This document shows positions 3,476-8,307 of a stretch of DNA of 64,000 nt, piece after piece (within the stretch, counting starts at the first letter, position 1; each line of letters opens with the position of its first letter). The notes below the pieces were generated by a model. That model was not told where the DNA came from. It searched no databases and was given only the letters and a program-made list of their open reading frames with translations. Location: positions 1 through 64,000 of the forward strand of contig CANRVD010000005.1 in the NCBI GenBank assembly GCA_947643145.1, written 5' to 3'. The translations under genes were made by a program, and so were the position numbers. Source of the stretch: an uncultured bacterium. Lineage in GTDB: Bacteria > Bacillota > Clostridia > Lachnospirales > Lachnospiraceae.

Positions 3476-4402
3476 ATGTATATACTATTTGGAATTTTTT
3501 TTATAATATGCCTTATTTTTCTTTTGGTCGGATGGCACCGGAGAAAATGTATCAGGGAAAAAATCTGCCGGATGGATATTTGTAAAAAGGTATGCCTTTT
3601 AAATAAGCTGTTAGACCCGGTTGGTTTTTGCTACCATATGCAGCAGGATATTATTGTGACAAAAGTGGAAGCATGGCAGAGGAGTTTTGGGTATTGTTCG
3701 CTTTTTGACCGGACAGCATCCCGGTTTGGAATGGTGTTTGACTGTGAACCGGTGTTTTTTTATTACAGAGGCCGCACATATCGTATTGAACTGTGGAAGG
3801 GGCAGTATGGTATCTGTCTTGGAGGAGAGGTTGGTATTTATTATACAGATGGCATTCTTACGACAGAACAGTTTCATACAGCCAGTTTTCAAAGTGTTTC
3901 CAATCAGGAGCTTCTTATGGTGGAGATGTCTTTTTATCATAAGGGGCAGAAGTTGTTTAAAAGTGCCGGAAAGCATTGGTGGCTCACTGGTTTTTGTGTC
4001 GGGAAATATTGTGAGCCGGAGGATACAGCTATAAAAGTATCGCTTCGTTTTACGAATCATGAGATGCTTTATGCCTTTACTGAAAGTCTCTTAAATATGG
4101 GATACCATAAAAATGAACTTTCGATTTGTGATACGATGATATCCTTTATATATGCAAGACCTTATACAAAACAGCCGCATGGAGCACATGGATTTTGGGC
4201 ATCATGGGTACGCTGGAAGAACAGGTTTCTTTGTAAGTTGTTTTTATTGGTCACAAAGCCTTTTTCCTGTACACTGGACCGTGTATTGTACTTGTATTTT
4301 TTCCTGCCTGTGGTTTTCCGGTGTCTGCTCTTAGGAAAGAGGAACCGCAGACAAAAATTTCATGGAAAGAAAAAGGGGGTGCGTTTGCGTGAGCTGTCAT
4401 AA
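3476..4402 (+). CDS. Hypothetical protein with N-terminal TM segment
   Basis: 308-aa ORF with RBS-like GGGATAG; hydrophobic N-terminus; overlaps the next CDS. Confidence 0.6.
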   Translation: MYILFGIFFIICLIFLLVGWHRRKCIREKICRMDICKKVCLLNKLLDPVGFCYHMQQDIIVTKVEAWQRSFGYCSLFDRTASRFGMVFDCEPVFFYYRGRTYRIELWKGQYGICLGGEVGIYYTDGILTTEQFHTASFQSVSNQELLMVEMSFYHKGQKLFKSAGKHWWLTGFCVGKYCEPEDTAIKVSLRFTNHEMLYAFTESLLNMGYHKNELSICDTMISFIYARPYTKQPHGAHGFWASWVRWKNRFLCKLFLLVTKPFSCTLDRVLYLYFFLPVVFRCLLLGKRNRRQKFHGKKKGVRLRELS

Positions 4403-5300
4403 ACGCATTTCAAAAGATTTTGAAAAAGCACTTTCCCTTCCATTAAATTTACAGACAAAGTATATTATTTTTAGCGACTGCCACCGTGGAACCGGCAGGG
4501 CCAATGACAATTTTACGCAAAATGAGGTTCTTTATCTGGCAGCACTCAGGCATTATTATCAATGTGGTTTTGTTTATTTGGAGCTTGGTGACGGGGATGA
4601 ACTTTGGGAGAACCGTTCTATGAAAAAGATAAAAGAAATACACGGCCATAGTTTTGAAATGCTTGCAAAATTTTATCAGAAGAACCGTTTTTTTGCCGTA
4701 TATGGAAATCATGATATGGTAAAAAAGCAAAAGGCATTTCAAAAGAAATTTTTTGATATGTATGATAGTGACAGTTTTTTATGTGAAAACTCGCTCTGTC
4801 CTGGTATTTGCTTTTATTCGGGAATTATTCTTCAGGATGCGCTCCATGTAAAAGATATTTATCTGACGCATGGGCATCAGGTTAGTATTATGAATAGTAC
4901 ACTTTGGAAAATAAATCGGTTTTTGGTGCGGTATGTATGGAAAAATCTGGAGCTTTTTGGTGTGCCGGACCCTACCAGTGCGGCGAAGAACCATACAAAA
5001 AAGAGGGAGGCAGAGAAGCTTTTTACAGAATGGGCAAAGGAGAATAACAATATTCTGATTACCGGGCATACGCATCATCCGATGGTTGGCTCCAGTGAAT
5101 CACCATATTTTAATACAGGGAGCTGTATTCACCCTGTTGCCATTACAGGGATTGAGATAGAGAACCGATGTATTTCGTTGGTAAAATGGTCATTGGGAAC
5201 GAAAAAGGACCAGTCTGTTTATGTGAAAAGGGAAATACTGGGAGAAACCATCTGCCTTGATGAATATAACAGGACAAATGCACGAGTGAAAATTCTGTGA
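4362..5300 (+). CDS. Calcineurin-like metallophosphoesterase
   Basis: FSDCHRGTG, GDGDELW, YGNHD, LTHGHQ, ITGHTHHP metallophosphatase motifs; C-terminal codons lie in an inserted repeat. Confidence 0.85.
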   Translation: MERKRGCVCVSCHKRISKDFEKALSLPLNLQTKYIIFSDCHRGTGRANDNFTQNEVLYLAALRHYYQCGFVYLELGDGDELWENRSMKKIKEIHGHSFEMLAKFYQKNRFFAVYGNHDMVKKQKAFQKKFFDMYDSDSFLCENSLCPGICFYSGIILQDALHVKDIYLTHGHQVSIMNSTLWKINRFLVRYVWKNLELFGVPDPTSAAKNHTKKREAEKLFTEWAKENNNILITGHTHHPMVGSSESPYFNTGSCIHPVAITGIEIENRCISLVKWSLGTKKDQSVYVKREILGETICLDEYNRTNARVKIL

Positions 5301-5899
5301 ACAAATCATGAGTTAGCATAATTTTAATTGTCTGTCTTCAGGGGATTTTGAGTAGTTTTTGCCCATAACTGCATACTAACTCATATGCCGTAGGATTCTT
5401 TATCCTTTTTCGTATTACATTTGACTTTGGTGAAGATGTTTGTTTTGTCAGTTTCGATGAATATGCGCCTCGTAGTTTGTCTGAAGCGGCTGCGTTATTT
5501 CGTATTGCTCCCTCTTAGGGCCGCTCCCGCTACATGATGCACATAGTGGTGCGTAATATCCCTGGTACATTATAATATTTTAGAATAACAGGTAAACAGA
5601 TGGAAGGAAATAATGTACCATACGGGATATAAGCACCAACGGCATCATAGTGCCCCAGAGAGGGAGCAATGCGAAATAACGCATTGCTGCAAGTTTACGA
5701 AGAGGCGCATAAATCAAACATCGAAACTGTAAAACATTACATCTTCACAAAGGCACAATGTCACGAAAAGATAAAGAATCCTACGGTATATGAGTTTTAT
5801 AAAATAACGGGCAAAAACTATCATAATGCTGAAAGACAGGCATCAACTATTTATTAAATCATGATTTGTTCACAGAATTTTCACTTATGCGTTTGTCCT
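5271..5899. mobile_element. Fold-back/MITE-like element, ~630 bp imperfect palindrome with flanking 11-bp direct repeats
   Basis: Left end AGGACAAATGCACGAGTGAAAATTCTGTGAACAAATCATGA; right end reverse complement AGGACAAACGCATAAGTGAAAATTCTGTGAACAAATCATGA; GATGAATATAA at 5259-5269 and 5900-5910; central arms ATATCCC-TG-GTACATTAT / ATAATGTACC-ATAC-GGGATAT. Confidence 0.8.
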
Positions 5900-5969
5900 G
5901 ATGAATATAAAAGATAAGGTTGCAAAGTGCTTGACGACTATGCTATAATGCAAATTAGCGTTATTTTTT

Positions 5970-6040
5970 GTGGGATAGGAGATTGCTCGAAATGTAGCGG
6001 GACGCCAACAAAAACGCTAGTGCGTTTTTGCAAGCACGAA
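5970..6040 (+). repeat. TATAGGAAA-family modular hairpin repeat (diverged copy)
   Basis: GATAGGAGATTGCTCGAAATGTAGCGGGACGCCAACAAAAACGC-TAGT-GCGTTTTTGCAAGCAC. Confidence 0.6.
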
Positions 6041-6078
6041 TAAACGCAAATAGTAGTTAATTAAAGGAGAAATGTAGC

Positions 6079-8307
6079 ATGAAGGACAAGACGAAAGGAT
6101 TACTGCAAATTCTGTTGATTCTTGTGGTAATCGGACTGTGTACTTTTACGACATTAGTAGGATTTACTAAAGCGCATAAAGGAAGCGCACAGAATATTAA
6201 ACTTGGTTTGGATTTGGCGGGTGGTGTCAGCATCACATATCAGGCTATTGGAGACAATCCTTCCGCTAAGGATATGGATGATACACGTAATATGATGCAG
6301 AAGCGTGCAGAAGTCTATAGTACAGAATCATCTGTTGTACTTGGTGAAGACAACCGGATTACCATTGATATCCCGGGTGTTGCCAATGCTGAGGAAGTAC
6401 TGTCATCCCTTGGTAAGGAAGGAAGTCTGGATTTTGTTGCTCAGGATGACATGACACTTAGTGGAGAGGACAATTCGGTTCCTGTATACAGTGAGACAAT
6501 TTGTACCGGTAAAGATATCAAGAGTGCAGAGGCAGACACACAAGAGGATCAGGTAACGAAAAATAGAAAGTATGTTGTATCCCTGAAGTTTAAGACAAAG
6601 GGAACAAAGAAATTTGCCAAGGCTACAGAGGAAGCATATCCGTCAAATAAAATAATTTATATCGTATATGATGGTAAGGTTATTTCAAATCCAGCCGTTA
6701 ATGCTGAGATTACGAATGGAGAGGCTGTTATTGAAGGAGGCTTTAAGACATATGAGGAAGCAGACGAGCTGGCTTCCATGATTCGTATTGGTGCGCTCCC
6801 TATCGAATTGAAAGAAGTACAGTCTCAGGTTGTGGGTGCACAGTTAGGTCTGGATGCTATTCAGACAAGCTTACTTGCCGGTGCAATCGGTTTTGCTTTG
6901 GTAATCTTATTTATGCTTATTTTCTATCGTTTGCCGGGCTTAGCAGCATCTATTGCATTAATATTCTATCTTGTATTAATGTTAGTTGTATTAAACCTAT
7001 TGGATATTACCTTAACGCTTCCTGGTATTGCTGGTATTATCTTAAATATCGGTATGGCGGTAGATGCTAATGTTATTATCTTTACACGTATTAAGGAAGA
7101 GCTTGCCAAGGGTAAAACAGTACAGTCAGCTATTAAACTTGGATTTGATAAAGCGTTATCAGCTATTGTGGATGGTAATGTAACAACCCTGATTGCTGCA
7201 TTTGTGCTTTATGTGAAAGGTTCTGGTACGGTTAAGGGTTTTGCAACAACACTGGCGATTGGTATTGTGTTATCTATGTTTACTGCATTAGTGGTTACCA
7301 AGATTTTACTGAATGCAATGTATGCACTTGGTGTGGATGATGTGAAATACTTTGGTGTTGAGAAAGAGCGTAAGACCATTAAATTTGTTGAGAACAGGAA
7401 AAAATTCTTCCTGATTTCAGGAATCATGGTTGTTGCCTGTGTTGTATGTATGATAATAAATCAGGCGGGACGTTGTGATGGAAATGTTTTGAATTACGGA
7501 CTGGACTTCTCTGGTGGTACAACATTTGATATTACATTTGACAGTTCACAGAAAATAGACTCTGATTTCAAAAAAGAAATAGAGCAGGTATTTATGGATG
7601 AGAGTAAGTCAAATGATGTTGTTATTTCAGAAATTTCCGGAGCGAATGGTTTATCTGTTAAGACGGTTGAACTTTCAGAAGAGCAGCGTAACAATATCAC
7701 GAATACTTTTGTGGAAAAGTATAAAGTAGAAGAAAAGAATATTGAAAATCAGAATATCAGCGCATCGGTATCGGATGAGATGAAGACAGATGCAGTTGTA
7801 GCCGTTGTGATTGCAGCAATTTGTATGCTTTTATATATCTGGTTACGGTTTAAGGATATTGTTTTTGCGGGAAGTGCTATTTTGGCATTACTTCATGATG
7901 TAGTCTTTGTATTGCTTATCTATGCACTGACTAAGATTTCAGTAGGTAATACATTTATTGCCTGTATGCTTACTATCGTAGGTTATTCGATTAATGCAAC
8001 TATCGTTATCTTTGACCGTATCCGTGAGAATATTGGTACCAGAACGAGTGAAGAAGCATTGACTCAGGTTGTAAACGAAAGTGTTACCCAGACTTTAACA
8101 CGTAGTATTAATACTTCTTTGACAACGTTTATCATGGTACTGATGATTGCCATCCTCGGTGTGGAATCCATTCGTGACTTTGCGATTCCTCTTATGGCAG
8201 GCATTATCTGTGGTGCGTACTCTTCCGTATGTATAACAGGAACCTTGTGGTTTACAATTAAGAGGATGCAGGGGAAAACATCAAAGAAAGCGGTTGGAAA
8301 TAAATAA
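6079..8307 (+). CDS. secDF: Fused protein translocase subunit SecDF
   Basis: SecD part (KLGLDLAGGVSITYQ...LPGIAGIILNIGMAVDANVIIFTRIKEE) followed by SecF part (NYGLDFSGGTTFDI...TIVGYSINATIVIFDRIREN). Confidence 0.95.
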   Translation: MKDKTKGLLQILLILVVIGLCTFTTLVGFTKAHKGSAQNIKLGLDLAGGVSITYQAIGDNPSAKDMDDTRNMMQKRAEVYSTESSVVLGEDNRITIDIPGVANAEEVLSSLGKEGSLDFVAQDDMTLSGEDNSVPVYSETICTGKDIKSAEADTQEDQVTKNRKYVVSLKFKTKGTKKFAKATEEAYPSNKIIYIVYDGKVISNPAVNAEITNGEAVIEGGFKTYEEADELASMIRIGALPIELKEVQSQVVGAQLGLDAIQTSLLAGAIGFALVILFMLIFYRLPGLAASIALIFYLVLMLVVLNLLDITLTLPGIAGIILNIGMAVDANVIIFTRIKEELAKGKTVQSAIKLGFDKALSAIVDGNVTTLIAAFVLYVKGSGTVKGFATTLAIGIVLSMFTALVVTKILLNAMYALGVDDVKYFGVEKERKTIKFVENRKKFFLISGIMVVACVVCMIINQAGRCDGNVLNYGLDFSGGTTFDITFDSSQKIDSDFKKEIEQVFMDESKSNDVVISEISGANGLSVKTVELSEEQRNNITNTFVEKYKVEEKNIENQNISASVSDEMKTDAVVAVVIAAICMLLYIWLRFKDIVFAGSAILALLHDVVFVLLIYALTKISVGNTFIACMLTIVGYSINATIVIFDRIRENIGTRTSEEALTQVVNESVTQTLTRSINTSLTTFIMVLMIAILGVESIRDFAIPLMAGIICGAYSSVCITGTLWFTIKRMQGKTSKKAVGNK

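What the first reader, a model, noticed from the sequence alone, without database searches (positions are those of the whole stretch)
5259..5910. ~630 bp fold-back element with 11-bp target-site-like duplication inserted into the end of a phosphoesterase gene
Seen directly: 5271-5899 is an imperfect palindrome centred near 5590. Outer arms AGGACAAA(T/C)GCA(C/T)(G/A)AGTGAAAATTCTGTGAACAAATCATGA are nearly identical. Inner blocks also match in inverted order: GGATTCTTTATC/GATAAAGAATCC, GGTGAAGATGT/ACATCTTCAC, ATGCGCCTC/GAGGCGCAT, GCGTTATTTCG/CGAAATAACGC, CATGATGC/GCATCATAG. GATGAATATAA flanks it at 5259-5269 and 5900-5910. No transposase is present. Established: TSDs of 10-12 bp are typical of some IS families such as the IS231 group. 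Inference: a non-autonomous MITE/fold-back element, or an inverted duplication of a small element, whose transcripts would form a very long hairpin RNA.
Basis: partly seen in the sequence, partly recalled or inferred. Interest (0 to 1): 0.85.

Follow-up and report, generated by a model that had tools for sequence, protein, structure and literature searches.

The report
Hairpin-shaped jumping element, conserved central fold
A 631-base mobile DNA element without genes, folded like one long hairpin, jumped in beside a gut-type bacterium's gene; its tip is a conserved fold, absent from the RNA catalogue searched, that sits in dozens of related hairpin elements and hints that the folded shape itself matters to these tiny genomic parasites.

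Summary
It carries no transposase. Both ends copy the left end of an ISAs1-family insertion sequence present in the same genome with 9-bp target duplications, so this is a non-autonomous ISAs1 fold-back element, not IS231-like. Empty orthologous sites exist in same-genus genomes. The unexpected part is inside. The hairpin tip (5516-5658, minus strand) holds a roughly 90-nt strand-specific fold with a GNRA-type mini-hairpin and strong covariation (25 of 27 pairs), with no match in Rfam 15. It sits at the centre of fold-back elements with different arms and ends in 58 of 150 sampled genera of the family, and was not found outside the family in about 197 genomes. In a sister genome with at least 23 full-length copies, the 340-bp arms keep pairing by compensatory double changes (82 against 9-16 in controls). 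Unpaired mutations lie almost only on terminal branches. There is little G-U/A-C strand bias in the arms, pointing to pairing at DNA level rather than to a long hairpin RNA. How the tip works is unknown.

The parts
5270..5900 (.). fold-back element, 631 bp, imperfect palindrome, no transposase
   Evidence: self-inverse alignment 73% over the full length, E 3e-77; fold z = -23.8; inverted repeat pairs I1-I4, I6, I7
5260..5269 (+). left target-site duplication ATGAATATAA
   Evidence: read directly; same length as the ISAs1 copy L060 (AATCAAATGA, 10 bp); 9 bp for the IS copies of the same genome
5901..5910 (+). right target-site duplication ATGAATATAA
   Evidence: read directly
5270..5315 (+). 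left terminal inverted repeat, copy of an ISAs1-family left end
   Evidence: 91% complementary to the right one; 34/40 identical to the left IS end, 26/40 to the right
5855..5900 (-). right terminal inverted repeat, also a copy of the left IS end
   Evidence: 35/40 to the left IS end, 27/40 to the right
5516..5658 (-). conserved apex fold: outer stem, covarying main stem CGTTGGTGC..GCACCACTATG with lengthened terminal loop, GNRA-type mini-hairpin on the 3' side
   Evidence: model R2, built without this sequence, finds it: 58 bits, E 1e-13, only hit in the window; R1 62 bits
5523..5530 (-). mini-hairpin GC-GGGA-GC (GNRA-type loop) of the apex
   Evidence: 56 of 58 distinct apex sequences have a GNRA loop here
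4362..5300 (+). metallophosphoesterase ORF whose last codons are replaced by the element
   Evidence: Pfam PF00149, E 3e-7; orthologues in 15 same-genus genomes without the element
5920..5949 (+). promoter-like TTGCAA-18-TATAAT just right of the element, before the SecD/SecF-like ORF at 6079
   Evidence: consensus scan only

Best explanation
Window 5270-5900 is a non-autonomous fold-back transposable element that an ISAs1-family transposase moved in trans, making a 10-bp target duplication. Shown: both ends are copies of the left end of an ISAs1-family element; the IS bearing that end is multicopy in this genome; orthologous sites without the insertion exist. Inferred: the element arose when a segment carrying that left IS end and a central fold was duplicated in inverse orientation. 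Shown in relatives: the interior belongs to a large class of fold-back elements in this bacterial family that have different arms and ends but one conserved central fold; in the best-populated genome the arms keep pairing by compensatory changes, mainly in the older, spreading lineages. Inferred: the DNA of these elements folds on itself in the cell; mismatches are either corrected against the other arm or stop a copy from spreading; the central fold works on one strand (as single-stranded DNA or RNA) in propagation of the element, not as a regulator of neighbouring genes.
For: Ends: the motif CAGGACAAAYGCAYRAGTGAA (up to 3 mismatches) occurs 22 times in the genome (reversed control 0), including 8 left and 8 right contig ends of an unassembled IS whose left and right flanks pair as 9-bp duplications. 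A full copy in a relative has an ISAs1 transposase (NF033564, E 2e-103) with the same ends and a 10-bp duplication. Both window ends match the left IS end. Empty sites: 15 same-genus orthologues. Class: genome G004 has at least 23 full-length copies about 680 bp long, most with exact or one-mismatch 9-10-bp duplications; its TIR also ends an ISAs1-family transposase gene in the window's genome. Pairing: 82 double-change events against 9-16 with slid partners; paired arm columns diverge 0.047, unpaired 0.120; single mismatches 185 on tips, 25 internal; doubles 36/36. Apex: 25 of 27 pairs compensatory, covariation score 0.579 against 0.215 shuffled; GNRA 56/58, G-U 129 against A-C 19; 58/150 genera in the family, and 2/199 phylum-wide, both same family; orientation to flanking genes mixed.
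Against: The window's exact 631-bp element is single-copy in its genome, so its own mobility is inferred from its ends and flanking repeat. The empty sites come from orthologues 45-70% identical at protein level with other downstream genes, not from the same species. The full ISAs1 copy in the window's own genome is not assembled; the family assignment rests on a relative's copy and on fragments. No autonomous partner was found in G004, and ISAs1 transposase was not detected there. Apex function, and selection versus mismatch correction in the arms, are not resolved. The alifold-derived structures favour G-U on the folded strand.
Confidence: 0.8

Rival explanations
1. A long hairpin RNA is the functional product: the element is transcribed and the roughly 300-bp double-stranded RNA is selected as such.
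For: Extreme predicted stability on both strands; the apex shows RNA-like G-U and GNRA bias on one strand; slight G-U excess in the arms (94 against 73 events).
Against: Arms show nearly equal G-U and A-C mispairs (90 against 78 cells) and internal branches none of the expected G-U preference (7 against 14); no conserved ORF; orientation to flanking genes mixed.
Confidence: 0.12
2. The class works like REPINs: a HUH (Y1) transposase recognises the central fold on single-stranded DNA and mobilises the hairpin; the DDE-type ends are secondary.
For: Single, inverted-pair and tandem arrangements occur, as REP/BIME sequences do (PMC3116915, PMC2817692); strand-specific fold independent of gene orientation.
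Against: 9-10-bp target duplications and inverted ends are DDE hallmarks, not those of HUH enzymes (own knowledge); the fold is internal, not terminal; the GT(A/G)G head of REPs is not consistently present; the REP-transposase survey found those enzymes only in gammaproteobacteria (PMC2817692).
Confidence: 0.07
3. A simple inverted duplication that is decaying neutrally; the arms match only because they are young.
For: Arms are imperfect.
Against: Related copies share the same imperfect arms yet change both sides together; paired columns evolve 2.5 times more slowly than unpaired ones.
Confidence: 0.04
4. A host regulatory device (terminator, attenuator or insulator) between the phosphoesterase and SecDF genes.
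For: Lies between two co-directional genes, beside a promoter-like site.
Against: Absent from the orthologous gene's 3' end in relatives; no terminator-like site; related copies lie beside unrelated genes in all orientations.
Confidence: 0.02

Closest known systems
ISAs1-family insertion sequences and their deletion derivatives (MITEs)
   Same: terminal sequence, 9-10-bp target duplications, dependence on a transposase in trans
   Different: both ends come from the left IS end; the interior is not IS sequence but a long hairpin with a conserved tip that is absent from the full IS copy
REP / BIME / REPIN sequences of Gammaproteobacteria (PMC3116915, PMC2817692)
   Same: high-copy, intergenic, folded units; single, inverted-pair and tandem forms; non-autonomous
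   Different: inverted ends with 9-10-bp duplications; arms up to 340 bp; fold at the centre; no GTAG head; no REP transposase identified
Eukaryotic fold-back transposons (Foldback, Galileo; own knowledge and titles)
   Same: elements made almost entirely of long inverted repeats
   Different: bacterial, about 0.15-0.75 kb, with a shared covarying central structure
Template-switch maintained hairpins (PMC8794818)
   Same: compensatory change in stems as a possible product of DNA replication
   Different: here in a multicopy mobile element; double changes are not clustered

Membership tests
ISAs1-derived non-autonomous element | ends match an ISAs1-family IS | tested here: met
   34-35/40 to the left IS end; IS typed by NF033564 and Pfam
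ISAs1-derived non-autonomous element | target duplication of about 8-10 bp (family value from own knowledge) | tested here: met
   10 bp at the window element; 9 bp for six IS copies; 10 bp for L060
ISAs1-derived non-autonomous element | no transposase gene of its own | tested here: met
ISAs1-derived non-autonomous element | simple deletion derivative with one left and one right IS end | tested here: not met
   both ends are left-type; so it is not filed as a simple deletion MITE, only as an element with ISAs1 ends
ISAs1-derived non-autonomous element | transposition by ISAs1 transposase | not testable with these tools
   needs an assay
IS231-group MITE | IS231/IS4-type transposase and ends | tested here: not met
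   cognate IS is ISAs1 family
REP/REPIN | GT(A/G)G head before a GC-rich imperfect palindrome | tested here: not met
   bases before the mini-hairpin vary: GTA, GCA, TCAA, GGA, TAA
REP/REPIN | associated RAYT (Y1) transposase | not tested
   ten flanking ORFs judged by eye from their translations look like ordinary genes; no genome-wide search was made
Rfam 15 families | match to any covariance model | tested here: not met
   no credible match over hairpin or apex (weak chance-level hits only)

The most novel reading that the evidence does not exclude
The central fold is a new class of structured nucleic acid that is the true selfish module: a hairpin parasite of Lachnospiraceae chromosomes that acquires the terminal repeats of whichever insertion sequences the host carries, and whose single-stranded folded form is required at a step of propagation, so that hairpin arms are kept paired at DNA level.
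Probability: 0.35. Interest if true: 0.85.

Novelty: new variant of a known kind. Interest (0 to 1): 0.62.

Why it matters
Fold-back elements in bacteria are usually dismissed as IS debris. Here one central fold, absent from Rfam, recurs in many genera at the heart of elements with different arms and ends, and covaries strongly. A genome with at least 23 full-length copies offers a natural experiment on whether long DNA hairpins form in living cells and whether they are kept paired by selection or by correction during replication; the two make different, testable predictions. It also warns that compensatory change alone does not prove an RNA function in mobile palindromes.

Tried and rejected
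No DNA relative in plasmid or phage records and no exact apex pattern in 2.9 million viral contigs: not phage- or plasmid-borne as far as seen. Coding capacity: many open frames but none conserved; the 62-aa ORF has no Pfam hit. Rfam: nothing credible. Apex as riboswitch or terminator: rejected, orientation to genes is mixed. Clustered template-switch tracts as the cause of double changes: not seen (4 adjacent pairs, 4.5 expected), though single-mismatch correction stays possible. Autonomous partner of the G004 elements: about 199 terminal-repeat occurrences, no intact IS among the 30 inspected; the same end follows an ISAs1 transposase fragment in the window's genome. Literature searches for Lachnospiraceae MITEs, REPs, interspersed repeats or such a fold found no description; only open-licence papers are held.

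Full report
OBSERVATION. Window 5270-5900 reads CAGGACAAATGCACGAGTGAAAATTCTGTGAACAAATCATGA...TCATGATTTGTTCACAGAATTTTCACTTATGCGTTTGTCCTG. The whole 631 bp aligns to its own reverse complement (73% BLAST identity, E 3e-77) and folds 24 standard deviations better than shuffles. It is flanked by ATGAATATAA at 5260-5269 and 5901-5910. The phosphoesterase ORF (PF00149) runs into the element and ends at 5300. Reading across the two flanks, the ORF would end ..LDEYKR*, much like orthologues in relatives (GATGAATATTAG, GATGAGTATTTATAG).

WHAT MOVED IT. The terminal motif (up to 3 mismatches) occurs 22 times in the window's own genome, 0 with the motif reversed. Sixteen of these are contig ends of an unassembled multicopy insertion sequence, eight left ends (CAGGACAAACGCATGAGTGAATAAATTGTGAACAAACACC) and eight right ends (CAGGACAAACGCATGAATGTTTATTCTC). 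Matching left and right flanks gives exact 9-bp duplications in six cases (GCTATCTGT, TTATTTGTT, ACTGACAAT, AGTTCTTCG, GCATTTTCC, CCATTTTAT). A complete 1255-bp copy with the same ends lies in a same-genus genome (G006 C13:2443-3697, locus L060), duplicated AATCAAATGA, with a 375-aa transposase of the ISAs1 family (NF033564 E 2e-103, PF01609, PF13808). Both ends of the window element match the left IS end (34 and 35 of 40) better than the right one (26 and 27 of 40). It is therefore an ISAs1-ended fold-back element whose two ends are inverted copies of one IS end. The IS231 attribution is rejected.

A CLASS OF HAIRPINS. The window element itself is single-copy in its genome, but its inner arms resemble multicopy palindromes in same-genus genomes. 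In one of them (G004, whose contig lengths equal those of bacterium D16-36, RAYF01) a 680-bp palindrome is present in at least 23 full-length copies plus many partial ones, most with exact or one-mismatch 9-10-bp duplications. Its end, CACGGAAATCAATTTTCA, occurs about 199 times (reversed control 2), including 50-62-bp and 177-bp internally deleted versions. In the window's own genome the same end directly follows the last codons of an ISAs1-family transposase fragment (C112, locus L364), so this end type is also of the ISAs1 family. Other carriers have other ends: GTTACTATTCACGG in G006 (8-bp duplications), about 280-bp elements ending near TGTTAGGGTCAAAAGG in the window's own genome, and about 220-bp elements ending near AAACTGTAGGTTAAAGG in G102.

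THE COMMON CENTRE. What these hairpins share is the tip. Fourteen tips aligned gave a consensus with 17 of 27 pairs compensatory. A covariance model found 65 examples among fetched loci: 92% of cells paired, 25 of 27 pairs changed on both sides, covariation score 0.579 against 0.215 for shuffles and at most 0.114 for slid partners (the alignment was fitted to the structure, which favours it, but the slid and shuffled controls were run on the same alignment). Anatomy on one strand: outer stem; main stem CGNCGGTACTTA...TTATGTACCGYTRCG with a variable terminal stem; a mini-hairpin on the 3' side whose loop is GNRA in 56 of 58 distinct sequences (GAAA, GAGA, GCAA, GGAA, GGGA, GCGA). G-U pairs outnumber A-C mismatches 129 to 19 on that strand (partly favoured by how the structure was derived). 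A model built without the window sequence finds it at 5516-5657 minus with E 1e-13, the only hit in 64 kb. The fold occurs in 58 of 150 genomes sampled from the family, often in dozens of copies and at least 25 in the window's genome. Of 199 genomes across the phylum only two match, the window's own and one more of the same family. Named carriers include Lacrimispora saccharolytica, Blautia, Roseburia and Lachnospira records. No viral contig matched the exact pattern. Rfam 15 has no match. Copies lie beside ordinary genes in mixed orientation, occasionally as inverted pairs or tandem arrays.

HOW THE ARMS STAY PAIRED. In 23 aligned G004 copies I took 232 pairs common to the folds of both strands and counted changes on a tree. 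[quoted passage not shown] with partners slid by 1-13 pairs only 9-16. Paired arm columns diverge less than unpaired ones (0.047 against 0.120). Single mismatches sit on terminal branches (185 tip, 25 internal), whereas double changes are as frequent inside the tree as at the tips (36/36). Between more distant families, pairs shared by both folds differ almost only by changes on both sides (counted only where both pair, so biased). Arms show nearly equal G-U and A-C mispairs (90 against 78 cells), unlike the tip. The simplest reading is that the DNA folds on itself: copies decay after insertion, and lineages that keep spreading are those still paired, or become re-paired by correction. Template switching can create and maintain hairpins (PMC8794818); the double changes here are not clustered, so one-mismatch correction or selection fits better than long tract replacement. 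The data do not separate these two.

WHAT IS SHOWN AND WHAT IS INFERRED. Shown: element, duplication, ISAs1 ends, empty orthologous sites, the class, the conserved tip, and covariation in arms and tip. Inferred: mobilisation by ISAs1 transposase, origin by inverse duplication, folding in the cell, and a role of the tip in propagation on one strand. Not known: what recognises the tip, and whether it acts as RNA or single-stranded DNA.

VERDICT. As a single element this is a new member of a known kind (a non-autonomous fold-back transposon). The class with its differing ends and conserved centre is, as far as the tools reach, undescribed, hence 'new variant of a known kind' with interest above average.

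Noticed in passing
G000 C2:2873-3053 (L025:2873-3053): A 181-bp element with ISAs1-type left ends at both sides and no apex; no flanking duplication seen. A further degenerate end lies at C2:3487.
   Followed up: partly
L160:1362-1901: Tandem array of 3.6 copies of a 148-bp unit, each with the apex fold.
   Followed up: partly
L035:1198-1587, L179:516-897, L157:1501-1906: Two apex folds in inverted orientation about 300 bp apart, like REP doublets.
   Followed up: partly
L228, L230, L232 (downstream of the orthologous phosphoesterase gene): GTTACTATTCAC-like repeat ends lie just behind the same gene in three other genomes; this gene's 3' end seems to attract elements.
   Followed up: no
G000 C1:170326-170372 (L010): A lone left IS end that runs into GCGTTTATTCTCGCGTACGCAACAAGCC, a sequence resembling window 6000-6050 (ACGCCAACAAAAACGC..AATAAACGC) and the insert in L051; perhaps another repeat family.
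   Followed up: no
G000, hits: Most of the listed apex hits in the window's genome are on the + strand of their contigs, which is odd for arbitrary contig orientation.
   Followed up: no
L257, L264, L265, L270 (JAMPHJ01): A record labelled Muribaculaceae carries many copies of this family-restricted fold; probably a mislabelled or mixed bin.
   Followed up: no
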